DNA of 51,779 nucleotides from Phaeospirillum sp. (GTDB lineage: Bacteria > Pseudomonadota > Alphaproteobacteria > Rhodospirillales > Magnetospirillaceae): NCBI GenBank assembly GCA_030824585.1, contig JAVBXM010000241.1, positions 1 through 51,779 of the forward strand. Reading direction: 5' to 3'. How positions within the stretch are numbered: position 1 is the stretch's first letter; every line of letters starts with the position of its first letter. The translations under genes were made by a program, and so were the position numbers. Shown piece after piece: positions 9,879 through 51,779 of this stretch. A model generated the notes under the pieces. That model was not told the DNA's origin. It ran no database searches and saw only the letters and a list, made by a program, of their open reading frames with translations.

Positions 9879-12455
9879 TTACTTCACGATATTGACGAGG
9901 ATATCCAGCATTTCCTGTAGCGTCGAAATCACCTTGGCCGACGCCGAATAGGCCTGCTGGAAGTTGATCATATTGGCCACCTCTTCGTCCAGGTTCACGC
10001 CGCTGGTCGAGGTGTACTGGGAATTGAGCGCCTGCCCCAGGGTGGTCTGGTAGTCCAGGCGGTCCTTGGTATGGGCCGCGTCGGTGGAGACCTGGGCGAT
10101 GGAGGCGGCGGCGTGTTCGGCGAAGTTGTAGCTGCCGGCGTAAAGGCTGCCGGCCGTCGCCATCTGGGTCTTGCTCGACATGGCGTCGCCCAGCGCCAGG
10201 GCGGTGGTGTTGTCGCCCTCGGACAGGAAGTACTTGCCGAGATCGGTGTTGTACTGCATGGCGCCGCGGCTGACCTTGGCCGGCGAACCCTGGATGTCGG
10301 TGCGCACCTCGATGGTTCCCGACTTGCGGGTCGAGGCCGTGTGCATGTTCAGCTCGGTGATGAAGCTGCCGGCCGGGGTCAGGGTGTCGGGGGTGGCGCC
10401 CAGGAACAGTTCCCGGTCGGATGTCTGGCGGATGCGCAGACGATAGCCCGCCCCTTCGGGGATCACCGAGGCCTGGATCTGCGGCGCCTGCTGCAGGCCC
10501 AGATAGGACTTCATGTCCGAGGTGCCGAGGGTGCCGCCGCTCACGGTGATATCCAGCGGCACGCCGCGGTTGTCCCAGACCCGCAGGCGGTAGGCATTGG
10601 GGGCTTCCTGCACCGCCGCCGCCTGGGCCGAGCTGCCCAGGGCGTTGATGGCGTCGGCGATATCCTTCAGCGTCATGGCTCCGGCGCCGACGCTGACCTG
10701 GGCCACCGTGCCGTTGGCATCGGTGATGCTGATGCTGGTCGGCGACGTGGTGGTCAGCGACGAACTGTTCAGCGTGGCGGATTCGTTGCACTGGGTCTGG
10801 GCGTTGATCTTGGCGGCGATGTCGTAGAGCGACGATCCCGCCGCCATGTTGATGGTGTTGCCGATCTTGCCGGTGGGGTCCGAGAGCGTGAAGCTGCGCG
10901 GTGCGCTCAGGGTGAAGTCCCTGGAGACCACGTCCGAATCCACGATGGAATCGGGCACCTTGGCGGTGAAGAAGTCGTTCAGGCCGAAGAAGTTGGCGAA
11001 CCCGGCCACCTGCTTGTCGGCCTTGTTGTCGCCGTCCACGTCGAAATTGATGCGGGCGTCGGTGGCGTCCGACCCGGCGGTGGTGGCCTTCTGGTCGCGA
11101 AAGGCCAGGGTCACCGACGGCACGCCGGTATCGAGGACCAGGGTGCCGGTGGTGATCGAGGCGCTGGCCGAGCTCATGACGTTGCCCTGATAGCTCTGCT
11201 GGCGCATCCAGCTTTGGACCTTGGCCGCCACGTCGGTCATCTTGACGCCAAGCGTGGTCGCCGTGTCCGACATGTCCAGCGCGGTGCCGGCACCGGCGGC
11301 ATCGGTATAGCTGGTGCTGCTCATGATGGTGCGCAGGGTGGTGGAGGCCACCTGGTTGCCTTCGGTGTCGAACAGGGCAATGGTGGTGTCGTCATTACCC
11401 GAAAACCAGATGTGCTGCGGGTTCGAGCCGTTGAGGGCCGGGTTGTTGGGGTCGACCAGTTGGCGGGTGCCCACCATCTTGGAGTTCTGGGTGGGGAAGA
11501 TGGTGCCGCGGTTGTGGACCTGGTTGACGGCTTCCTTGAGCTTGGCGGCCACCTCGTCCATCTGGGCCTGGAGATTGGTGATGACGGTGTCGCGGATGTC
11601 CAGCAGGGCGCGCAGCTGACCGTCGTTGATATCCTCGCCGATATCGGGGGAATCGGTGGAGCTCAGGGTCAGCTTGTTGAAATTGCCGCCCGCCGCCGTC
11701 ATCCAGGAATCGGTGATGGTGGTCGCCACGTGGCTCATGGTGGAGGGACCCTTGTCGACCAGGGTCTTGCCGGTCTTGGTGAAGACGCCCACCGAACCGT
11801 CGCCGCGCTCGAAATACTGGATATCCATGAACTTGGACAGCGTGGTCAGCGCGGTGTCGCGCTTGTCCTGCAGGTCGCCGATATCGCCGCCGATGGCGTT
11901 GTTGCGGACGATCTTCTGGTTGAGGTCGAAGATGTCCTCGAGTTGCTTGTTGACCTGTTCGGCGGTGTCGTGGATGGCGCGGTCGGCCTCCAGCCGCAGG
12001 TTCTGCATGTGGTAGGTCATCTCGTTGAACTGGCTGGTCATGTCCTTGGCGGTCTGGACGGTCGCCTGCTGGAAGGCCGGCGTGTTGACCTGGGTGGCCA
12101 GGGTCTCGAACGATGTCTGCAACTGCTCGATCTGGTGCGAGATGGAGGTGGACTTGCCCACCGTGCCGAACAGATCCTCGAGGCGGGGGTAGTAGGTCTG
12201 GGTGACGTCCAGGGCGCCCTGGGTCGAGGTCTGGCGGCGGATGTCGCGCATCAGTCCCTCGTCCACGGTGCGGGTCAGCGCACCCTGCTGCACACCGGCG
12301 CCGATACCGTTGACCACCCGGGATTCCGGGCTCATCTGCTTGCGGACGTAGCCCTTGGTGTTGACGTTGACCACGTTCTGGGAAATGACGTCCAGACCCT
12401 TCTGGTTGGTCATCAGTCCCGACAGCGCCGTATTGAGTCCGAGGGTAATGGACAT
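9879..12455 (-). CDS. flgK: Flagellar hook-associated protein FlgK (HAP1)
   Basis: FlgK is the first hook-filament junction protein. The N-terminus GLNTALSGLMTNQKGLDVISQNVVN and the C-terminus LDEEVANMINFQQAYSASAK are the conserved helical regions that form the junction core. GDIGDLQDKRDTAL near residue 190 is also typical. At 858 residues it is about 300 longer than the enterobacterial protein; the extra sequence is in the central, surface-exposed part (about 330-700). A GGGGAAGAG Shine-Dalgarno precedes ATG 12455. It lies between the chaperone gene flgN and flgL. Confidence 0.95.
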   Translation of the reverse strand: MSITLGLNTALSGLMTNQKGLDVISQNVVNVNTKGYVRKQMSPESRVVNGIGAGVQQGALTRTVDEGLMRDIRRQTSTQGALDVTQTYYPRLEDLFGTVGKSTSISHQIEQLQTSFETLATQVNTPAFQQATVQTAKDMTSQFNEMTYHMQNLRLEADRAIHDTAEQVNKQLEDIFDLNQKIVRNNAIGGDIGDLQDKRDTALTTLSKFMDIQYFERGDGSVGVFTKTGKTLVDKGPSTMSHVATTITDSWMTAAGGNFNKLTLSSTDSPDIGEDINDGQLRALLDIRDTVITNLQAQMDEVAAKLKEAVNQVHNRGTIFPTQNSKMVGTRQLVDPNNPALNGSNPQHIWFSGNDDTTIALFDTEGNQVASTTLRTIMSSTSYTDAAGAGTALDMSDTATTLGVKMTDVAAKVQSWMRQQSYQGNVMSSASASITTGTLVLDTGVPSVTLAFRDQKATTAGSDATDARINFDVDGDNKADKQVAGFANFFGLNDFFTAKVPDSIVDSDVVSRDFTLSAPRSFTLSDPTGKIGNTINMAAGSSLYDIAAKINAQTQCNESATLNSSSLTTTSPTSISITDANGTVAQVSVGAGAMTLKDIADAINALGSSAQAAAVQEAPNAYRLRVWDNRGVPLDITVSGGTLGTSDMKSYLGLQQAPQIQASVIPEGAGYRLRIRQTSDRELFLGATPDTLTPAGSFITELNMHTASTRKSGTIEVRTDIQGSPAKVSRGAMQYNTDLGKYFLSEGDNTTALALGDAMSSKTQMATAGSLYAGSYNFAEHAAASIAQVSTDAAHTKDRLDYQTTLGQALNSQYTSTSGVNLDEEVANMINFQQAYSASAKVISTLQEMLDILVNIVK

Positions 12456-12999: not shown

Positions 13000-13326
13000 T
13001 CACTGCACCTCCTGGTGGCTCAGCAGCATTTTCTGGACGGCGGCGCCGATCCCGATGCCATTGCCTTTGTTGGCGACCATTTTACCGTATTCGTCGATCA
13101 GCAGGGACCGGAACATCTGCTCGCCGCTGCCGCCGCCGAAGACGCCGTCGGTCTTGATGCCCTCGAACATGTGGGTGAGCATCTGGCTCATGTACATGGC
13201 CTCGAACTGCCGGCCGGTCTTGGCGGCGCGGGCGGTGTCGGTGGCGTTGGCCGCGGGCATCCTCACCCCCGGCATGCCGGTGTCGGTGTAGGGCTTGGCG
13301 GCCATGGAGGGAAGCGTGCTCATCAC
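13000..13326 (-). CDS. flgJ: Rod-binding protein FlgJ (N-terminal domain only)
   Basis: This is the rod-scaffold domain of FlgJ without the C-terminal muramidase domain found in gammaproteobacteria, as usual in alphaproteobacteria. Its 108 residues include FEAMYMSQMLTHMFEGI and FRSLLIDEYGKMVANKGNGIGI, the conserved rod-binding motifs. The ATG at 13326 overlaps the flgI stop (ATGA); a second ATG follows immediately at 13323. It is translationally coupled to flgI. Confidence 0.9.
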   Translation of the reverse strand: MMSTLPSMAAKPYTDTGMPGVRMPAANATDTARAAKTGRQFEAMYMSQMLTHMFEGIKTDGVFGGGSGEQMFRSLLIDEYGKMVANKGNGIGIGAAVQKMLLSHQEVQ

Positions 13327-14501
13327 AGAACCTCCAGATCGGCCTGCAGCGCGCCCGCCGCCTTGATGGCCTGAAGGATGGTGATCAGGTCGCGCGGGCC
13401 GATGCCCAGGCTGTTCAGTCCCTCGACCAGTTCCTGCAGGGTGACGCGGTGGGCGACCACGGCCAGCTTGTTGCCGGCGCCTTCATCCACCTGGATGTCG
13501 GTGCGCTGCACGGTGGTGGTGGTGCCGGTGTCGGAGAACGGCGAGGGCTGGGACACCTGCGGCGTCTCGGTGATGCGGATGGTCAACTGGCCCTGGGCGA
13601 TGGCCACCGTGCTGATGCGCACGTTCTCGCCCATGACGATGGTGCCGGAGACCTCGTCGATCACCACGCGGGCCATCTGGTCGGGCTCGACGCGCAGTTG
13701 CTCGACATCGGTCAGCAGGCCGACCACGTTGCCGCGATAGCCGGCCGGAACGGTGATCTGCACCGTGCCGGGGTCGACGGGACGCGCCATGTCGCCGCCC
13801 AGGAAGGAATTGATCGCCTGGGCGATGCGGCGCGAGGTGGTGAAGTCGGGATTGCGCAAGGACACCTTGACCGATTCCAGATGGGACATCTCGAAGGGCA
13901 GTTCGCGCTCGACGATGGCCCCGTTGGCGATGCGGCCGGCGGTGGGCACGCCCTTGGTCACCGACGAGCCCGAGGCGCCCGTGGCGGTGAAGCCGCCGGT
14001 CGCCACCTGGCCCTGGCCGACGGCGTAGACCTCGCCGTCGGCGCCGATCAAGGGCGTGACCAGCAAGGTGCCGCCGCGCAGGTCCTTGGCGTCGCCCATG
14101 GCCGAGACGTTGATGTCGATGCGGGTGCCCTGGCGGCCGAAGGGCGGCAGGACGGCGGTGATCATCACGGCGGCGACGTTCTTGGGAGTAAGCTGGGCGC
14201 TGATGGCGCCGGTCTTGTCGCGGATGTTGACGCCCAGGCGTTCCAGCATGCCGGTCAGGCTTTCCTTGGTGAACGGCGCGTTGGTCAGCGAGTCGCCGGT
14301 CCCGTTGAGGCCGACCACCAGGCCGTAGCCCACCAGCATGTTGTCGCGGACGCCCTCGAAATCGGCGATATCCTTGATGCGCGAGGCGCCGAAGGCCTCG
14401 GCGGGCATCATGCCCAGCGTCGCGGCCAACAGCGAGGCGGCCAGCAACAGGGCGCGGATCGGTTGGGCGGTGAACAGGGCGCGGTGGACATTGCGGTTCA
14501 T
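13323..14501 (-). CDS. flgI: Flagellar P-ring protein FlgI
   Basis: FlgI forms the periplasmic P ring around the flagellar rod. The 392-residue protein has a Sec signal peptide (about residues 1-39: positive MNRNVHR, a hydrophobic LLLAASLLAATLG core and a likely AFG-A cleavage region), then RIKDIADFEGVRDNMLVGYGLVVGL, GTGDS, and the terminal LNSLGIGPRDLITILQAIKAAGAL. It is the first gene of the minus-strand operon and sits behind a sigma54-type promoter. The length is normal. Confidence 0.97.
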   Translation of the reverse strand: MNRNVHRALFTAQPIRALLLAASLLAATLGMMPAEAFGASRIKDIADFEGVRDNMLVGYGLVVGLNGTGDSLTNAPFTKESLTGMLERLGVNIRDKTGAISAQLTPKNVAAVMITAVLPPFGRQGTRIDINVSAMGDAKDLRGGTLLVTPLIGADGEVYAVGQGQVATGGFTATGASGSSVTKGVPTAGRIANGAIVERELPFEMSHLESVKVSLRNPDFTTSRRIAQAINSFLGGDMARPVDPGTVQITVPAGYRGNVVGLLTDVEQLRVEPDQMARVVIDEVSGTIVMGENVRISTVAIAQGQLTIRITETPQVSQPSPFSDTGTTTTVQRTDIQVDEGAGNKLAVVAHRVTLQELVEGLNSLGIGPRDLITILQAIKAAGALQADLEVL

Positions 14502-27408: not shown

Positions 27409-29205
27409 GTGAGCGGTGGTAAGCACAAGACGGCGGAGCAGCTCCTGCAGGATGCGGTGAAGCTTCACCTTTCCGGCGATCTGGATGGGGCGGGCCGTCA
27501 GTACAAAAGCCTGCTCAAGCTGGCGCCGCTTCATCCCGACGGCCTGCATCTGTCCGGTCTGGTGGCCATGCAGAAGGGCCGGTTGGCCGAGGCCGAGCGC
27601 CTGATCCGCGGCGCCATCGCGGCCAGCCCCAAGGCCGCCGCCTTTCACGGCAATCTCGGCACGGTGCTGCTGTCCTCCGGTCGGCCGCAGGAGGCCATGG
27701 CCTGCTACCGCCGCGCCGTGGAGCTGGACGAGTCCTATGTGGACGGCTGGCGCAATATAGCCAGCGTGGCGGCGCAGTTGGATAACCACGAGGGCTCGGC
27801 CCTGGCCTACAGCAACGTGGTGCGCCTGACCGGCGGCGGCGATGGCGGGGCACTGGGCTATCTCGGCCTGGAACTGGCGGTGCTGTGCGACTGGGACAAC
27901 ATCCCCATGGTCAGGGAAGCCATTTCGGCGCTTCCCTCGTGGCGCACCGGCAAGAGCCTGCCGGTGGCCCCCTTCACCCTGCTGATCCATGATTTCAGCC
28001 CGGCCGAGCTGCGCCGCCATGCCGACGAGGCCGCCTCGTTCATCGAGAACCGGACGGCGCCCATGTCCCATGCGCCCGTGCCGCGCCGCCCCCGCCTCCG
28101 GCTGGGCTACCTGTCCGAGGATTTCCACGACCACGCCACGGCCTATCTGCTGGCCGAGGCGCTGGAAGGCCACGACAGGTCCCGCTTCGAAATCTTCGCC
28201 TATTCCTACGGCCCCGAGACCCAGGGGGCGGTCCGCGCCCGGCTCAGGGACGCCTGCGATCATTGGGTGGAGCTGAGGGCGCTGTCCGAGCCCGATTGCG
28301 CCAAACGCATCCAGGCCGACGGCATCGACATCCTGGTGGACCTCAAAGGCCACACCGGACGTGCCCGCACCGGCATCCTGGCCGCCCGGCCGGCTCCGCT
28401 CCAGGTGGCGTGGCTGGGTTTTCCCGGCACTTTCGGCGGTACCTGCATGGACTATATCGTCGCCGATTCCTTCGTGATTCCGCCGGGGGCCGAGGGCGAT
28501 TACGCCGAGCAGGTGGTGCGCCTGCCGCTGTGCTACCAGCCCAACGATTCCCGCCGGCCGCGCGCCGCCATCCGGGAGTCCAAGGCCAGGTGGGGCCTGC
28601 CCGGGGAAGCCTTCGTCATCGCGGTGTTCAACAACACCTTCAAGATCAACGCCGAGGCCTTCGCGGTCTGGGTGAGCGTGCTGCAGGCCCAGCCGGACGC
28701 GGTGCTGTGGTTCGTGGAGTTTCATCCGACGGCCAGCGCCAGCCTGCGCAACATGGCCCAGGCGGTGGGGATCGACCCGGCCCGGCTGATCTTCGCGCCG
28801 CGCCTGCCCCAGGCCGAGCATCTGGCCCGCCTGTCGGCCGCCGACCTGTTCCTCGACACCTGGCCGTGCGGCGGCCACACCACGGCCAGCGACGCCCTGT
28901 GGGCCGGCGTGCCGCTGGTGGCTTGGGCGGGCCGCACCTTCGCCTCGCGAGTGGCCGGTTCGCTGCTGCACGCCCTGGGCTTCGACGAATTGATCGCCGA
29001 GTCGCAAGGTGCCTATCATGCCCTGGCCCAGCATCTGGCCAAGGACCGTGCCGCCCTGGCCCAGTTGCGCGAACGCCTGTGGGCCACCACCCAATCCTCG
29101 CCCCTGTTCGACGGCAAGGCTTTTGTCGGCCCGCTCGAGACGGCCTTCGACACCATGTGGGCCAGGTGGGAAAAGGGCGAGAAGCCGAAGGGCTTCGACG
29201 TCTGA
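27409..29205 (+). CDS. TPR-containing GT41 glycosyltransferase (OGT/SPINDLY-like)
   Basis: Cytosolic transferases of family GT41 add a sugar (GlcNAc, or fucose in plant SPINDLY) to Ser/Thr of proteins. The 598-residue protein has tetratricopeptide repeats at about residues 5-135 and the catalytic region from about 228: LRLGYLSEDFHDHA (His matching the active-site His of OGT), LGFPGTFGG, LPLCYQPND, VFNNTFK (Lys aligned with the UDP-binding Lys of OGT), and LDTWPCGGHTTASDALWAGVP. GTG 27409 is the start. Being divergent from flaF suggests flagellar proteins as targets; that is inference. Confidence 0.85.
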   Translation: MSGGKHKTAEQLLQDAVKLHLSGDLDGAGRQYKSLLKLAPLHPDGLHLSGLVAMQKGRLAEAERLIRGAIAASPKAAAFHGNLGTVLLSSGRPQEAMACYRRAVELDESYVDGWRNIASVAAQLDNHEGSALAYSNVVRLTGGGDGGALGYLGLELAVLCDWDNIPMVREAISALPSWRTGKSLPVAPFTLLIHDFSPAELRRHADEAASFIENRTAPMSHAPVPRRPRLRLGYLSEDFHDHATAYLLAEALEGHDRSRFEIFAYSYGPETQGAVRARLRDACDHWVELRALSEPDCAKRIQADGIDILVDLKGHTGRARTGILAARPAPLQVAWLGFPGTFGGTCMDYIVADSFVIPPGAEGDYAEQVVRLPLCYQPNDSRRPRAAIRESKARWGLPGEAFVIAVFNNTFKINAEAFAVWVSVLQAQPDAVLWFVEFHPTASASLRNMAQAVGIDPARLIFAPRLPQAEHLARLSAADLFLDTWPCGGHTTASDALWAGVPLVAWAGRTFASRVAGSLLHALGFDELIAESQGAYHALAQHLAKDRAALAQLRERLWATTQSSPLFDGKAFVGPLETAFDTMWARWEKGEKPKGFDV

Positions 29206-43274: not shown

Positions 43275-43522
43275 AGGTGCTGTACTTCGCCTGGCTGAAG
43301 GCCAAGACCGGGATCGGGGAAGAGGACATCGCCCCGCCCGATGGAACCGCCACCGTCGGGCAGTTGGTGGAATTCCTGAAAGCCCGCTCGCCCGGCCACG
43401 CGGCGGCCTTCGAGACCATGAGCGCGGTGCGTGTCGCGGTGAACCAGGATTTCGGCAATCTGGATACGCCGGTCAAGGTCGGTGACGAAGTGGCGTTTTT
43501 CCCCCCCGTCACCGGAGGGTGA
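43271..43522 (+). CDS. moaD: Molybdopterin synthase small subunit MoaD
   Basis: MoaD is the ubiquitin-fold sulfur carrier of molybdopterin synthase; its C-terminal Gly-Gly is thiocarboxylated. The 83-residue protein starts MKVLYFAWLKAKTG and ends DEVAFFPPVTGG, the required di-glycine terminus. The ATG overlaps the moeA stop. The last codons and stop form the first unit of the 31-bp tandem repeat that follows. Confidence 0.95.
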   Translation: MKVLYFAWLKAKTGIGEEDIAPPDGTATVGQLVEFLKARSPGHAAAFETMSAVRVAVNQDFGNLDTPVKVGDEVAFFPPVTGG

Positions 43523-43622
43523 CATGACCGATTTCAAGGTCACCGGAGGGTGACATGACCGATTTCAAGGTCACCGGAGGGTGACATGACCGATTTCAGG
43601 TTCACAGGAGGGTGACGTGACC
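43508..43622 (+). repeat. 31-bp tandem repeat creating three mini-ORFs between moaD and moaE
   Basis: Three full 31-bp units (43508-43538, 43539-43569, 43570-43600) and a partial fourth (43601-43622). Units 1 and 2 are identical; unit 3 differs by one base near its end. Each unit contains GGAGGGTGACATG, that is a Shine-Dalgarno, a stop and a start. The result is three 9-codon frames, at 43524-43553, 43555-43584 and 43586-43615 (MTDFKVTGG twice, then MTDFRFTGG), each separated by one base and ending like MoaD in Gly-Gly. The last runs into the moaE GTG. Confidence 0.9.
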
Positions 43623-44093
43623 ATCCGCGTCCAGCGCGAGGATTTCGATCCCGGCGCCGAACTGGCCCGGTTCTCGTCGGGCAAGACCAATGTGGGCGGC
43701 ATCTGTCTGTTCGTCGGGCTGGTCCGCGACTATATGGGCCATGACCCGGCGTCGGGCGCCCAGGTCAACGGCATGACCCTGGAGCACTATCCCGGCATGA
43801 CCGAGCGCCAGCTGGAGGCCATCGAGGCCGAGGCCCGCAAGCGCTGGCCCCTGGACGACGCCCTGGTCATCCATCGCTATGGCCGGCTGGAGCCGGGCGA
43901 GCGCATCGTGCTGGTGGCGGCCTCGTCGGCCCATCGCGATGCCGCCTTCGAGGCCTGCCGCTTTCTCATCGACTGGCTGAAGACCAAGGCGCCGTTCTGG
44001 AAGGTGGAGCATACGCCGCAAGGCGATGCCTGGGTGGACGCCAAGGAGTCCGACGATGCGGCGGCGTCCCGCTGGGATCAGGCGAAGGCCTGA
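43617..44093 (+). CDS. moaE: Molybdopterin synthase catalytic subunit MoaE
   Basis: MoaE receives sulfur from MoaD to convert cPMP to molybdopterin. The 158-residue protein has GGICLFVGLVRDY near 28-40, MTLEHYPGM, and the catalytic region RYGRLEPGERIVLVAASSAHRDAAFEAC...LKTKAPFWKVE with the active-site Lys pair. The start is GTG 43617 with AGGAGGG inside the final repeat copy. It is the last gene of the uvrC-moaE run. Confidence 0.95.
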   Translation: MTIRVQREDFDPGAELARFSSGKTNVGGICLFVGLVRDYMGHDPASGAQVNGMTLEHYPGMTERQLEAIEAEARKRWPLDDALVIHRYGRLEPGERIVLVAASSAHRDAAFEACRFLIDWLKTKAPFWKVEHTPQGDAWVDAKESDDAAASRWDQAKA

Positions 44094-44495: not shown

Positions 44496-46574
44496 CTATT
44501 TGCCCTTCCTTGCCTTGCCCTTGGCCGGGGCGGCAGCCTTGGCCACCGGCTTGCTGGGGGGCATCTTTCCCGGCCATAGCCTTGCGTCGGGCGGGACGGG
44601 GCAATGGCGGTGGTAGTCGCGCAATTGGGCGCCATAGAGGTCCAGGTAATCGGTCCGGCCCAGCATCTCCACCGCGTCGCTGTCCAGGTCGGTGCCGATC
44701 TCGTCGTAGATCTCCAGGTTGCTCAGGTCGGGAACCGGAACTTGGTCGGCGACGAAGTCGTCCCACATCCGGACCAGCAGCGCGTCCAGGTGGCTCACCA
44801 GCTTGTCGGTATCGAACAGGTCGCAGGTCGCGCGGTTGGCGGCCAGCGTCTCGCGATAGGCATTGCGCCGGCGCTTGTCGTTGCCCAGTTCCACCGCCTT
44901 TTCCACGTAATCCTCGAAGGTGGTGCAGACCAGGTCGCCCAGGCCCGCCGCCACTGCCAGGCTGCCGCAGACCCGCGAGGCGAAGCCGCGTCCCGCCACG
45001 GTCAGCACCGGGACACCCATCCACAGGGCGTCCGAGGCGGTGGTATGGGCGCCGCAGGGCGAGGTGTCGAGGAACAGGTCGGCCAGGGGATAGCGCGACA
45101 GGTGCTCGGCGTTGATCAGCTTGGGGGCGAAGATGATGCGGTCGGGGGTGACGCCGTGCTTGATGGCTTCCTGGCGCAGGCGTTCGTTGATGCGCTCGCC
45201 GCCGTCCAGCAGCCACAATACGCCGTTGGGCACCCGGCTGAGGATATCCATGAAGCGCGCCCACATGGGTGCGGTGAACTTCTGCAGGCCGTTGAAGCCG
45301 CAGAACACCACGGCGTTGGCCGGCAGGCCCGCCGCCTCGCGCGTCCACTTGATGTCGGCCACCAGCCGCCGGCGGTCGTTGGGCTGGTAGCAGGGCAGCC
45401 GCACCACCTTCTCCGAGTAGTATTTCTCGAAAACGGCCGGGATGGTGAAGTCGTCGGCGATGACGTAGTCGTGGTAGGGCGTGCCCATGGATCCGGGATA
45501 GCCCAGCCAGTTGACGGCGACGGGGGCGGGACGCATGGCCATGATGGCCGGGCGCGCCTCGCCGGTATAGCCGTTGAAGTCGATCAGGATGTCGATGCCG
45601 TCGGCATGGATGCGCTTGGCCACGTCCTCGTCGGACATGTCCAGGATATCCACCCAGTGGTCCACGTCCTTCATCACCTGGGTCTGGATACGGTCGCCGC
45701 TGCGGCGCGAGCAGGAATAGGCATAGACCTCGAAGCGCGAGCGGTCGTGCAGCTTGTACATCTCGGCGGTCAGGTAGCCGTGGGCGTGCTCGCGGAAATA
45801 GGACGACAGATAGGCGATGCGGATGCGCCGCTTGGGCCGCCCCGCCAGAGCGGCGCGGTGGCTGTCGCGATCGAAGAACACCTTCGGCCGGCCGATCTTG
45901 GCCTTGTAGTACTTGTAGCCGCGCGCCAGATGCAGTAGCGGATCGTCGGTGTGGAACACCAGGCAATGGGGCGACATGGCGGCGAACAACTGGCGCCGGG
46001 TCGGACCGGTGACGCCGGAGAGGACCGGCCATTTGCACAGCTTCTGGCGGATGGCGATCCAGTGCTGCATGGCGTCGCTGGGCTGTACCAGTTCGATACA
46101 CTGGCGCAGCGCATCCTCGCCCGATTCCTCCAGCGAGGTATGTTCCAGCACACGGCCGATCTGCTTCAGGGCCGAAACCTTGTAGGTCACCGTTTCGCCG
46201 GTGATGCCGGGCAACTGGTTGACCATGCCCAGCCACTGGGTGACCGCGTCCGGGGTGCTGCCCAGCCGTTCATAGGTGCTGCCCAGGTTGATGTGGGCGG
46301 GGTAGAATTCGGGGCGCTGGGCGATGGCGGCCTTGAACGCCTCGACGGCGCCGGCATGGTCGTTGAACTTCCCCAGCAGGACGCCGAGATTGTACTGGAT
46401 GGCATAGGCCAGCGGATTGTCGGCGTTGTACTGCAGCCAGGTCCGGTAGAGGCCCAGCGCATCGGCATCGGCCCCCTGGGCCGTCAGGCTGTCGGCCGCG
46501 GCAATGACGCGGGTTGCCTCGATCTTGCCGGAAGCGATCTGACTCATGACCTCCGCGAGGGCATTGCTCATCAA
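44496..46574 (-). CDS. TPR-containing GT41 glycosyltransferase (OGT/SPINDLY-like), second of a pair
   Basis: A 692-residue cytosolic protein O-glycosyltransferase candidate. TPR-like repeats fill about residues 1-140 (NLGVLLGKFNDHAGAVEAFKAAI, INLGSTYERLG). The catalytic part has IAYLSSYFREHAHGYLTAEM near 267, NWLGYPGSMGTPYHDYVIAD, VRLPCYQPND, VVFCGFNGLQK (Lys aligned with the OGT UDP site) and FLDTSPCGAHTTASDALWMGVPV. The tail ends KGKARKGK, basic. ATG 46574 overlaps the stop of the upstream paralogue (ATGA). Confidence 0.87.
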   Translation of the reverse strand: MMSNALAEVMSQIASGKIEATRVIAAADSLTAQGADADALGLYRTWLQYNADNPLAYAIQYNLGVLLGKFNDHAGAVEAFKAAIAQRPEFYPAHINLGSTYERLGSTPDAVTQWLGMVNQLPGITGETVTYKVSALKQIGRVLEHTSLEESGEDALRQCIELVQPSDAMQHWIAIRQKLCKWPVLSGVTGPTRRQLFAAMSPHCLVFHTDDPLLHLARGYKYYKAKIGRPKVFFDRDSHRAALAGRPKRRIRIAYLSSYFREHAHGYLTAEMYKLHDRSRFEVYAYSCSRRSGDRIQTQVMKDVDHWVDILDMSDEDVAKRIHADGIDILIDFNGYTGEARPAIMAMRPAPVAVNWLGYPGSMGTPYHDYVIADDFTIPAVFEKYYSEKVVRLPCYQPNDRRRLVADIKWTREAAGLPANAVVFCGFNGLQKFTAPMWARFMDILSRVPNGVLWLLDGGERINERLRQEAIKHGVTPDRIIFAPKLINAEHLSRYPLADLFLDTSPCGAHTTASDALWMGVPVLTVAGRGFASRVCGSLAVAAGLGDLVCTTFEDYVEKAVELGNDKRRRNAYRETLAANRATCDLFDTDKLVSHLDALLVRMWDDFVADQVPVPDLSNLEIYDEIGTDLDSDAVEMLGRTDYLDLYGAQLRDYHRHCPVPPDARLWPGKMPPSKPVAKAAAPAKGKARKGK

Positions 46575-48819: not shown

Positions 48820-51779
48820 TTACGGGTAGGCGAACGCCGTGCTCCAGGCATTCTGCTGATCGGTTGTCATGTTGCCGACCAGCGGACCGAGCGCCTGGGC
48901 CTGGATCGAGGTCATGGCCAGGATATCGGTGGTTTCCAGACCGGAGATCTGTGTCGTGGTCAGGGCCCCCAGTTGCGTGGTGGTCAGGCCGCTCACCTGG
49001 GTGGTGGTCAGGGCCTCGATGGAGGTCGAGGTCAAGGCACCGAACTGGGTGAGGGTCAGGGCCGCGATGTCGGTGCTTTCGATGGCCGCGAAGACGGTGG
49101 TGGTCAGCCCGGCCAGTTGGGTTGCCGACAGACCGCCGATCTGGGCGGTGGTCAGGGCCGCCACGTTGGTGGTGGTCAGGGCATTGACCGCGGTGGTAGT
49201 CAGGCCGCCGATCTCGGTGGCGGTCAGCGCACCCAGCTTGGCGGCGGTCAGAGCTGCCGCCTGGGTATTGGTGATGGCGGCCATCTGGGTGGTGGTCAGA
49301 GCCGCGATGTCGGTGGTCTCCATGGCGTTCAGCTGGGTGGTGCTGAGGCCGCTGATCTGCGTGGCAGTCAGGTTGGAGGCCTGGGTGGTCGACAGCGCCG
49401 CCACCTGGGTGGTGGTCAGGGCATTGAGGTTGGTGGTGGACAGGGCCGCCACCTCGGTGGTGGTCAGCACCGCCAGGTTGGTGGTGGTGATGGCCGCCGC
49501 CTGGGTGGTGGTCAGGCCGCCGATCTGCGTGGCGGTAAGCGACGCAAGGTCGGTGGTTTCCAGAGCGTTCAACTGCGTAGTGCTGAGGCCGCCGACCTGG
49601 GTGACGGTCAGGCTCTGGACCTGGGTGACCGTGAGCGCCGCCAGATCGGTGGTCTCAAGGGCGTTCAGCTGGGTGGTGCTGAGGCCGCTCACCTGGGTGG
49701 TGGTCAGGCTGCTCACCTGCGTGGTGGACAGGGCCGCCACGTTGGTGGTGGTCAGCACATTCAGCGTGGCGGTCGAGAGGGCCACCAGATCGGTGGTCTC
49801 GATGGCGCCGAGTGCGGTGGCGTTGAGGCCGGCCGCCTGGGTGGTGGTGATCGCCCCTACCTGGCTGGTGGACAGCGCCGCGACGTTGGTGGTCGACAGA
49901 GCGTTCAGCGTGGTGGTGTTGAGGCCGGCCACCTGAGCGGTGGTCAGGCTACCGACCTGGGTAGTGGTCAGGGCCGCCACGTCGGTGGTTTCCAGGGCGT
50001 TCAGCGTGGTGGTGTGGAGGCCGCTCACCTGGGTGGCGGTCAGGCTGGACACCTGGGCGGTGGACAGCGCCGCCACGCCGGTGGTGGTCAGGGCGTTCAC
50101 CGCGGTGACGGTCAGCGCCGCCAGATCGGTGGTTTCGATAGCCGCCAACTGGGTGGTGGACAGGCCCGCCGTCTGGGTCGAGGTCAAGGCCGCCGCCTGG
50201 ATGGTGGACAGTGCCGCCACGTTGATGGTGGAGATCGCGTTCAGCGCAGTGGTGCTGAGGCCGGCCACCTGGGTGGTGGACAGAGCTCCCAACTGAGCGG
50301 TGGAGATCGCCGCTAGGTTGGTGGTGGTCAGCGAGTTGATCTGGGTGGTGGTCAGCGTCGCCACTTCAGTGGTGGTCAGGGCTCCCAGCGTGGTGGTGCT
50401 GAGCGCGCCGATCTGGGTGGTGGTGACGCCGCCGATCTGGGTGGCGGTCAGTGCCGCCACGTCGGTGGTTTCCAGGGCGTTGATCTGAGTGGTGCTCAGG
50501 CCGGCGACCTGGGTGGTGGTCAGCGACTGGACTTGGGCGGTGGTCAAGGCCGCCACGTCGGTGGTTTCCAGGGCGTTCAGCGTGGTGGTGCTGAGGCCGC
50601 TCACCTGGGTGGTGGTCAGGCTGGACACCTGGGCGGTGGACAGGGCCGCCACACCGGTGGTGGAGAGCGCGTTGACCTGGGTGGCGGACAGGGCCGCCAG
50701 ATCAGTGGTCTCGACGTAGCCGAGCTGGGTGGTGGAGACACCGGCCAGTTGGGTGGTGGTCAGTGCCGCAACCTGGGTCGAGCTTAGGCCGGCCACGCTG
50801 ACGGAGGACAGCGCGTTGAGGTTGGTGGTGGAGAGGTTGGCCACCTGGGTGGTGGTCAATCCGGTCACCTGGGTGGTGGTCAGCGCCGCCGCACCGGTGG
50901 TGGTCAGGGCGTTGAGGGCGGAGGTGGTCAGTGCGCCCACCTCAGTGGCCGTAAGGCTGGTCAGGTTGGCGGTGGTGATGCCGGCCGCCTGGGTGGTGGT
51001 CAGGGCGCCCACCTGGGTGGTGGTCAGGGCGGCGATGTCGGTGGTTTCCAGCGCGTTGACCTGGGTGGTGTTCAGGGCGCTGATCTGGGTCGCGGTCAGC
51101 GAGCGCACCTGGGTGGTGGTCAGGGCCGCCACGTCGGTGGTCTCCAGGGCGTTCAGCGTGGTGGCGCTGAGGCCGCTCACCTGGGTGGTGGTCAGGCTGG
51201 ACACCTGGGCGGTGGTCAGGGCCGCCACGCCGGTGGTGGTCAGGGCGTTGACCTGGGCGGCGGACAGGGCCGCCAGATCGGTGGTCTCGACGAAGCCCAA
51301 CTGAGTGGTGCTGAGGCCGTTGACCTGGGTGGTGGTCAGCGCCGCAACCTGGGTCGAGCTCAGCCCGGCGATGCCGGTGGTGGAGAGCGCGTTGAGGTTG
51401 GTGGTGCTGAGGTTGCTCACCTGGGTGACCGTCAGGCCGGACAACTGGGTGGTCGACAGGGTCGCCGCGTTGGTGGTGGAGAGCGCATTGATCTGGGTGG
51501 TGGTCAGTGCTGCCACTTCGGTCGAGGTGATGCCCGACAGGGCGGTGGTGTTCAGGGCGCCGATCTGGGTGGTGGTGATGCCGCCAACCTGGGTATTGGT
51601 CAGGGCGGCGATGTCGGTGGTCTCGAGCGCGTTGACCTGGGTGGTGTTCAGAGCCCCGATCTGGGCGGTGGTCAGCGAGCGCACCTGGGTGGTGGTCAGG
51701 GCCGCCACGTCGGTGGTCTCGAGGGCGTTCAGCGTGGTGGTGGCCAGGCCGCTCACCTGGGTGGTGGTCAGGCTGGACA
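48820..51779 (-). CDS. Giant Thr-rich octapeptide-repeat protein (5' end beyond window)
   Basis: The frame is open from the right edge to a stop at 48820, at least 985 codons. Nearly all of it is an 8-residue unit of form [VIL]-x-[AG]-L-x-T-T-[QxD], about 115-120 copies, for example VAALTTTQ, VNALETTD, INALSTTN. Leu/Ile at the fourth position and Val/Ile/Leu at the first are almost invariant, and about a third of residues are Thr. The C-terminal tail (about 30 residues) is unique: ILAMTSIQAQALGPLVGNMT then TDQQNAWSTAFAYP. No Cys. The pattern suggests a solenoid with a hydrophobic core, likely exported or surface exposed, but the N-terminus is not visible. Function unknown. Confidence 0.85.
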   Translation of the reverse strand, partial: SSLTTTQVSGLATTTLNALETTDVAALTTTQVRSLTTAQIGALNTTQVNALETTDIAALTNTQVGGITTTQIGALNTTALSGITSTEVAALTTTQINALSTTNAATLSTTQLSGLTVTQVSNLSTTNLNALSTTGIAGLSSTQVAALTTTQVNGLSTTQLGFVETTDLAALSAAQVNALTTTGVAALTTAQVSSLTTTQVSGLSATTLNALETTDVAALTTTQVRSLTATQISALNTTQVNALETTDIAALTTTQVGALTTTQAAGITTANLTSLTATEVGALTTSALNALTTTGAAALTTTQVTGLTTTQVANLSTTNLNALSSVSVAGLSSTQVAALTTTQLAGVSTTQLGYVETTDLAALSATQVNALSTTGVAALSTAQVSSLTTTQVSGLSTTTLNALETTDVAALTTAQVQSLTTTQVAGLSTTQINALETTDVAALTATQIGGVTTTQIGALSTTTLGALTTTEVATLTTTQINSLTTTNLAAISTAQLGALSTTQVAGLSTTALNAISTINVAALSTIQAAALTSTQTAGLSTTQLAAIETTDLAALTVTAVNALTTTGVAALSTAQVSSLTATQVSGLHTTTLNALETTDVAALTTTQVGSLTTAQVAGLNTTTLNALSTTNVAALSTSQVGAITTTQAAGLNATALGAIETTDLVALSTATLNVLTTTNVAALSTTQVSSLTTTQVSGLSTTQLNALETTDLAALTVTQVQSLTVTQVGGLSTTQLNALETTDLASLTATQIGGLTTTQAAAITTTNLAVLTTTEVAALSTTNLNALTTTQVAALSTTQASNLTATQISGLSTTQLNAMETTDIAALTTTQMAAITNTQAAALTAAKLGALTATEIGGLTTTAVNALTTTNVAALTTAQIGGLSATQLAGLTTTVFAAIESTDIAALTLTQFGALTSTSIEALTTTQVSGLTTTQLGALTTTQISGLETTDILAMTSIQAQALGPLVGNMTTDQQNAWSTAFAYP
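49423..51779 (-). repeat. 576-bp higher-order tandem repeat made of 24-bp units
   Basis: The sequence GTTCAGCGTGGTGG recurs at 49999, 50575, 51151 and 51727, spaced exactly 576 bp. A second marker (TCTCGACGAA and variants) recurs at 50133, 50709 and 51285, again 576 bp apart, with a related copy at 49557. 576 is 24 x 24 bp, so 24 octads (192 residues) form one super-unit. The order decays toward the 3' end of the gene. Confidence 0.9.

What the first reader, a model, noticed from the sequence alone, without database searches (positions are those of the whole stretch)
49423..51779. Nested 24 x 24 bp higher-order repeat
Octads of 24 bp are grouped in super-units of 24 octads (576 bp, 192 residues), with two independent markers each recurring at exactly 576 bp. 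The period holds with no visible indel over at least four copies and decays toward the 3' end, so growth was by whole super-unit duplication, perhaps still active in the part outside the window. Alternatively the 192-residue length is fixed by structure, such as a full super-helical turn.
Basis: seen in the sequence. Interest (0 to 1): 0.75.

Follow-up and report, generated by a model that had tools for sequence, protein, structure and literature searches.

The report
Giant screw-shaped protein with seven-turn super-repeat
The window ends inside a giant bacterial protein gene made of hundreds of 8-residue repeats, whose longer 192-residue pattern is probably the length at which a tightly wound helical rod completes seven turns, so that the same side chains line up along one face.

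Summary
The 576-bp (24 x 24 bp) super-period is real: the strongest of all lags under 2 kb and far above octad shuffles. It holds cleanly for three full units plus a fourth start; below about 50.0 kb the phase slips by 10 octads. The feature is the C-terminal 985 codons (minus strand, cut by the contig end) of a giant Paramagnetospirillum protein of the Pfam ALTTAQ repeat family (PF20080); complete relatives have 4,391-4,588 residues. AlphaFold2 gives about one short helix per octad (pLDDT 92.5); the one strong solved sequence relative is PDB 9zem, HeliScrew4.

Inside the 24-octad unit the signal concentrates at 7/24 (alias 5/24) and 1/2 cycles per octad. Other lineages show the same roughly 3.4-octad wave with other top lags (7, 10, 17, 31, 34). 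So 24 octads most likely means seven screw turns, not one. Orthologs differ in length by one super-unit and recent copies lie towards the C-terminal end; elsewhere synonymous sites are near background while the period persists, so selection seems to keep it. GT41 glycosyltransferase neighbours (HlyD-type genes in another genus) suggest a glycosylated, exported rod. Pitch and function are inferred.

The parts
48820..51777 (-). C-terminal 985 codons of a giant octad-repeat gene (PF20080, ALTTAQ repeat), open at the contig end
   Evidence: the contig is exactly the window
51202..51777 (-). super-unit 1, 24 octads (octads 0-23)
   Evidence: marker at 51709
50626..51201 (-). super-unit 2, 24 octads; 83% DNA identity to unit 1
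50050..50625 (-). super-unit 3, 24 octads; 77% DNA identity to unit 2
49714..50049 (-). short unit of 14 octads (336 bp); phase slip of -10 octads; exact borders uncertain by a few octads
49138..49713 (-). decayed unit, matched to unit 3 at lag 38 octads (75% DNA identity)
48922..49137 (-). degenerate last octads (110-118)
48820..48921 (-). non-repeat C-terminal tail, similar to that of the complete relative L021
46571..48592 (-). TPR + GT41 (SPINDLY/OGT-type) glycosyltransferase, about 230 bp downstream, probable partner
   Evidence: PF13844 E 7.7e-83; neighbour conserved
44496..46574 (-). second TPR + GT41 glycosyltransferase, overlapping the first by 4 bp
   Evidence: PF13844 E 4.9e-84

Best explanation
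The DNA repeat is the coding trace of a giant rod-shaped protein. Each 8-residue octad (xALTTTQV) forms one short helix, and successive octads wind into a tight helical screw with Leu-3 and Val/Ile/Leu-8 inside. One screw turn takes about 3.43 octads (27.4 residues), and even and odd octads differ. The smallest even number of octads that restores the same orientation is 24, that is 7 turns, with near-misses at 10, 14, 34 and 38. Duplications or deletions of 24 octads therefore keep special residues (NALETTD octads on one face, Arg/Lys octads roughly opposite) in straight stripes along the rod, and are the ones selection tolerates best. Shown: the period, the 7/24 and 1/2 frequencies, the family, the conservation of GT41 neighbours. 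Predicted: the fold. Inferred: that 3.43 octads is the physical turn, that the stripes serve side-by-side packing or binding, that the GT41 enzymes glycosylate exposed Ser/Thr, and that the rod is exported to the surface (function about 0.4).
For: Lag 576 is the best of lags 1-1999, z 13 against octad shuffles. Spectra peak at 7/24, its alias 5/24, and 12/24. In the 6.85-7.15 band, 32 of 35 sense-strand octad tracts exceed all 40 parity-keeping shuffles (33 of 38 with three antisense frames counted); in 24 of the 35 the highest peak of the whole spectrum below 11.4/24 lies in that band. Within the averaged 24-octad unit harmonic 7 is reached by 0 of 5000 column permutations in 7 of 8 tracts and by 10 of 5000 in the window, which has only 3 units. 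Outside the genus 17 of 20 tracts have a top lag (7, 10, 17, 24, 31, 34 or 48) within 0.1 turn of a whole number of 3.42-octad turns. Core positions 3 and 8 are weakly modulated in L021 and L081. AlphaFold2: pLDDT 92.5, pTM 0.83, 47 helices of 4 or more residues in 48 octads; a distant member from one sequence gives the same pattern, pLDDT 90.6. 9zem HeliScrew4 E 1.4e-13. Coarse backbone scan: of 2751 compact clash-free screws with positions 3 and 8 inside, 506 have 3.0-3.5 octads per turn and 2 have 4.5-5.0 (both hands).
Against: Coordinates of the models were not available, so octads per turn was never measured on a structure. Even lags alone cannot tell 7/24 from 5/24 (3.43 or 4.8 octads per turn); the choice rests on tracts without even/odd alternation (L040, L070, L077, L079) and on the coarse scan, whose commonest bin is 2.5-3.0, not 3.0-3.5. 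In 11 of 35 tracts the highest peak is elsewhere: at the alias near 5 in the window, L022, L023 and L085, at other values in L070, L072, L075, L076, L078, L079 and L087; L074, L075 and L087 have no significant 7/24 peak. L072, L086 and L087 have top lags (4, 4, 16) off whole turns. If any harmonic is allowed, permutations reach the observed harmonic-7 power in 149 of 5000 cases for the window and in 0-18 for the others. In L040 position 8 is strongly modulated. The tracts are homologous and not independent; 3.42 was fixed after seeing the spectra; the spread 3.37-3.48 is bounded by the band chosen. Phase slips of 10 and 14 octads show that the register is not absolute.
Confidence: 0.72

Rival explanations
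1. The 24-octad unit is a historical accident: an ancestral 24-octad block was duplicated repeatedly and has not yet diverged. Structure does not matter.
For: Ortholog lengths differ by one unit; recent copies in the C-terminal third of L021, DNA identity up to 0.97 over 8 octads and codon identity 0.82-0.88; in the window the first units are somewhat above background too (0.81 against 0.68).
Against: In octads 48-180 of L021 codon identity at lag 24 is at or below background while the period persists. An arbitrary block would spread power over all harmonics; it is concentrated at 7, 5 and 12. Other lineages show the same frequency with top lags of 7, 10, 17, 31 or 34 octads.
Confidence: 0.12
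2. 192 residues is one full super-helical turn of a gently coiled solenoid.
Against: It predicts power at harmonic 1 of 24. Observed share at harmonic 1 is 4-9%, at harmonic 7 14-21%, in the window, L021, L022 and L023.
Confidence: 0.05
3. The screw has 4.8 octads per turn (5 turns per 24), the alias allowed by the even-lag rule.
For: Power at 5/24 is about equal to that at 7/24 in the window, L021, L022 and L023.
Against: Tracts without strong parity (L040 6.92, L077 6.97, L070 7.06, L079 7.08) show the 7/24 band and no peak at 5/24 among those listed. Only 2 of 2751 modelled screws had 4.5-5.0 octads per turn.
Confidence: 0.08
4. The octads form a beta-solenoid, for instance an ice-binding or adhesin type, with two octads per coil.
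For: Strong two-octad alternation (12/24 peak); Thr-rich repeat.
Against: Both AlphaFold2 models are helical with no strand; the one strong solved sequence relative is called HeliScrew.
Confidence: 0.03

Closest known systems
Pfam PF20080 ALTTAQ repeat
   Same: P0001 matches at E 1.1e-174, 566 bits against a cut-off of 26.4, 32 stretches
   Different: The Pfam model is a 38-position tile; the octad, the 24-octad unit and a fold are not in what the call shows of it. No paper with 'ALTTAQ' was found; 'PF20080' gave seven papers with unrelated titles, not opened
HeliScrew4 (PDB 9zem)
   Same: Octad repeat of the AALTPEQI type; phmmer E 1.4e-13 over 111 residues. A preprint (PMC12822642; [quoted passage not shown] that 9zem is that protein is inferred from the name
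   Different: 120 residues, from repeated random sequence if that abstract is about it; no super-repeat known to me; ours is natural, with relatives up to about 4,600 residues in this group
Titin-type super-repeats
   Same: Repeats ordered in longer super-repeats that match a long filament (recalled; a listing with abstract start on titin seen)
   Different: Different fold and kingdom; here the super-repeat is explained by the pitch of the protein's own screw
FlmG-type glycosyltransferases (Caulobacter)
   Same: A cytoplasmic O-glycosyltransferase with an N-terminal flagellin-binding domain that can modify flagellins before export (passages of PMC7591256)
   Different: Here the GT41 genes sit beside an octad rod gene; no activity shown; whether FlmG belongs to GT41 was not found in that text ('GT41' 0 occurrences)
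Mesothelin/stereocilin superhelices, ARM repeats

Membership tests
PF20080 ALTTAQ repeat | score above Pfam's gathering cut-off | tested here: met
   566.3 bits against 26.4
alpha-helical screw (HeliScrew) | eight-residue repeat, sequence similar to the solved protein | tested here: met
   phmmer E 1.4e-13
alpha-helical screw (HeliScrew) | one short helix per octad | tested here: met
   AlphaFold2 DSSP, (predicted, not solved)
alpha-helical screw (HeliScrew) | same rotation and rise per octad, superposition on 9zem | not testable with these tools
   No model coordinates in the script box; 9zem is not among the 50 rows listed by the fold search
ARM/HEAT alpha-solenoid | fold match above the common background | tested here: inconclusive
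type I secreted giant protein | HlyB/HlyD-type genes next to the gene | tested here: inconclusive
   HlyD-type gene upstream in 3 of 3 loci scanned of one other genus (L081, L083, L084), with an ABC exporter seen in L083. In the window only the downstream side is held and it has GT41 genes
GT41 substrate | sugar on Ser/Thr | not testable with these tools
   Only gene neighbourhood: GT41 adjacent in 11 of 16 loci

The most novel reading that the evidence does not exclude
A natural, widespread family of giant helical-screw rods in which super-repeat lengths in the gene (7, 10, 17, 24, 31, 34 octads) are the rational approximants of one fixed screw pitch. The genome thereby records a structural constant, and duplication is filtered so that chemical stripes stay straight along a glycosylated surface rod. 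At about 10 angstrom per turn (assumed) a 550-octad protein would be about 160 nm long, adjustable in steps of seven turns.
Probability: 0.45. Interest if true: 0.78.

Novelty: new variant of a known kind. Interest (0 to 1): 0.62.

Why it matters
If right, a fold that a 2025 preprint abstract calls a new super-secondary structure found with random repeats already exists in nature as giant proteins. It also gives a clean example of why a super-repeat has the length it has: commensurability between repeat length and screw pitch. That makes a testable prediction (about 105 degrees per octad) from sequence alone, and offers a modular rod whose length and face chemistry can be read from the gene.

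Tried and rejected
Searching papers for HeliScrew, for ALTTAQ, and for 'Magnetospirillum' with 'octapeptide repeat' gave nothing. PF20080 gave seven listed papers with unrelated titles, none opened; 'super-repeat' with solenoid terms gave three listings, none opened; 'Magnetospirillum', 'giant protein', 'tandem repeat' gave 87 papers of which 15 were listed, one of these looked into. The alpha-solenoid review PMC11514114 (two passages) and the mesothelin paper PMC2628672 (term search without hits) show nothing on this family. Foldseek against viral models: best E 2.8e-6 with TM-score 0.20, not informative. NCBIfam gave no match over a cut-off for the repeat protein. The coarse backbone scan is compatible with 3.43 octads per turn but does not single it out. 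The search for related loci returned 3 loci only. 9zem was absent from the listed structure matches, so no superposition.

Rows dropped before counts: L028 and L034 (copies of L038 and L039); L026, L030, L033, L035 and L080 gave no tract under the script filters, although at least L026 and L030 hold repeat genes; three antisense frames were dropped for and for the count 32 of 35.

Full report
What is there. The window is one whole contig (G000:C179, 51,779 bases). On the minus strand an open frame runs from the contig end (51777) to a stop at 48820, 985 codons. It is built of 119 octads of 24 bp without a frame break and matches Pfam PF20080, the ALTTAQ repeat, at E 1.1e-174. The octad reads x-A-L-[ST]-T-T-Q-[VIL].

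The 576-bp period. DNA self-identity at lag 576 is 0.729, highest of lags 1-1999. Shuffling whole octads 2000 times never gave more than 0.673 at any lag of 1-59 octads, against 0.749 observed at lag 24. Markers recur at exactly 576 bp four and three times. The next copy of the second marker is 336 bp away, and local best lags become mostly 38 and 14 octads. 14 + 10 = 24, so this is a slip of -10 octads.

The full gene. Three congeneric genomes carry complete relatives with the same start (VAVVSSVTF) of 4391, 4588 and 4588 residues; L024 has the same start but a broken frame. Contig C258 of the window's own genome starts like them and is collinear at offset 0 with L021 in 12 of 16 and with L022 in 11 of 16 segments; its open frame of 1069 codons reaches the contig's end. 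It probably holds the other end of this gene, the middle being lost in assembly. All 16 genus rows (two of them duplicates) have lag 24 octads among their top six lags, 14 of them as the first; the exceptions are L036 and L037. Repeat genes in L026, L030, L033 and L035 were not measured, because the filter passed no tract there.

Duplication or selection. L021 and L022/L023 have 549 and 573 octads, one unit apart; L024 shifts against L021 by 24 and 48 octads. In L021, 24-octad blocks starting at octads 372-432 have codon identity for equal residues at lag 24 of 0.82-0.88 (background from odd lags 0.648): recent copies or conversion. For blocks starting at 48-180 it is 0.53-0.62, for those starting at 192-360 0.59-0.73. 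The stretch 84-276 nevertheless shows the periodic profile strongly. In the window it is 0.81 at the upstream end, falling to 0.69 (background 0.68). So super-units are still gained and lost towards the C-terminal end, but in much of the rest the period seems to be kept by selection on the protein. L022 and L023 have identical E-octad maps and 91.6% collinear DNA identity.

What fixes 24. The 25 strongest lags in the window are all even numbers of octads and include 4, 10, 14, 20, 24, 34, 38, 48 and 62. Fourier spectra of the octad string peak at 7/24, 5/24 and 12/24 cycles per octad. 12/24 is the even/odd alternation and 5/24 = 12/24 - 7/24. Within the averaged 24-octad unit, harmonics 5, 7 and 12 hold 48-63% of the power in the window, L021, L022 and L023; permuting octads within parity reached the observed harmonic 7 in 10 of 5000 cases for the window and in 0 of 5000 for each of the seven other tracts. 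If the largest of harmonics 1-11 is compared instead, 149 of 5000 permutations reach it for the window and 0-18 for the others. The 6.85-7.15 band is above all 40 shuffles in 32 of 35 sense tracts (33 of 38 with antisense frames), and the highest peak below 11.4/24 lies in this band in 24 of 35; L074, L075 and L087 are not significant. The tracts come from this genus and from other families and classes of the phylum, found by a search of 398 genomes of which 28 had matches. They are homologous, so this is not 35 independent tests. Band peaks of the significant tracts correspond to 3.37-3.48 octads per turn, a range bounded by the band itself. The window, L022, L023 and L085 peak highest at the alias near 5/24; L070 peaks at 9.90 and L079 at 2.82, which fit the second harmonic of 7.06 (24 - 14.1) and a 17-octad unit; L072, L075, L076, L078 and L087 peak elsewhere. 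Outside the genus the top lags are 24 or 48 (5 tracts), 10 (5), 7 (3), 34 (2), 31, 17, 4 (2) and 16; 17 of 20 are within 0.1 of a whole number of 3.42-octad turns, the exceptions being L072, L086 and L087. The value 3.42 was set after seeing the spectra. The simplest reading is a screw with about 3.43 octads per turn; 24 is the smallest even number that closes (7 turns), 10 and 14 miss by 30 degrees.

Fold. AlphaFold2 on octads 0-47, with 13 further rows from the window and L038-L040, gave pLDDT 92.5 and pTM 0.83, with 47 helices of 4-6 residues in 48 octads. A distant member (Rhodocyclaceae MAG, L040), from one sequence, gave pLDDT 90.6 and the same pattern; of its five models two were lower, 76.0 and 30.9. 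The one strong sequence relative of known structure is 9zem HeliScrew4. A preprint (PMC12822642; abstract and significance statement only) describes a new tightly wound alpha-helical screw; the link of that text to 9zem is by name. I could not read whether its authors mention natural relatives. Foldseek and VIA-align gave only weak superhelix matches. A coarse backbone scan is compatible: 506 of 2751 selected screws have 3.0-3.5 octads per turn, 2 have 4.5-5.0, the commonest bin is 2.5-3.0.

Faces. In L021 power at 7/24 is high at octad positions 1, 2, 4, 5 and 7 and low at 3, 6 and 8; in L081 3 and 8 are low but 6 is high; in L040 position 8 is among the highest, against a simple core reading. 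In L021, L023 and the window E4, D7 and N1 lie within about 50 degrees of each other; R1 is 193-195 degrees from E4 in L021 and L023, and is not among the window's 14 strongest features. In L079 acidic and basic residues at positions 4 and 6 are also roughly opposite; in L031 and L070 they are only about 65 and 105 degrees apart.

Neighbours. A TPR-GT41 glycosyltransferase lies directly downstream in the window, followed by a second. GT41 is adjacent in 11 of 16 repeat loci examined: the window, G009, G011, G016, G005, G010, G002, G006, G012, and, outside the genus, G390 and G411. None is adjacent in G003, on the paralog contigs C9 and C253 of G000 (the listing is cut at its weak end), in G084 (about 6 kb away) and in G431, where none was found in the genome. 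For G010, G012 and G411 adjacency rests on coordinates of domain matches. In another genus, HlyD-type genes lie upstream in 3 of 3 loci scanned, with an ABC exporter seen in one. I infer a cytoplasmically glycosylated and exported rod, by analogy with FlmG and flagellin (passages). Function confidence is about 0.4.

Verdict.

Noticed in passing
L024:1729-16060: In genome G005 the corresponding giant gene is read in two overlapping frames (1412 and 3475 codons, open), a frame break in the repeat, either real or a sequencing error. Described only.
   Followed up: partly
window 43508-43622: Tandem array of a 31-bp unit, 3.7 copies, 95% matches, containing GTCACC...GGTGAC, just at the start of a MoaE gene (43617-44093).
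   Followed up: no
window 27409-29205: A third TPR-GT41 glycosyltransferase gene on the plus strand, and flagellar genes on the same contig: FlgI at 13323-14501 and a FlgK-like protein at 9879-12455.
   Followed up: partly
L071-L076, L085 (genus g141): Giant ALTTAQ proteins with open frames up to 6,436 codons listed and an extremely strong two-octad (16-residue) alternation, several per genome.
   Followed up: partly
N-terminal part of the L021-L025 and L039 proteins: A conserved stretch (NTQIVFxAAQLGVL) breaks the octad register once near residue 85; paralogs show a similar break (QMxFSATQLAVL).
   Followed up: no
L079:4806-9050 (minus): Repeat protein with a 17-octad super-unit (408 bp), five turns by the same reading.
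   Followed up: partly
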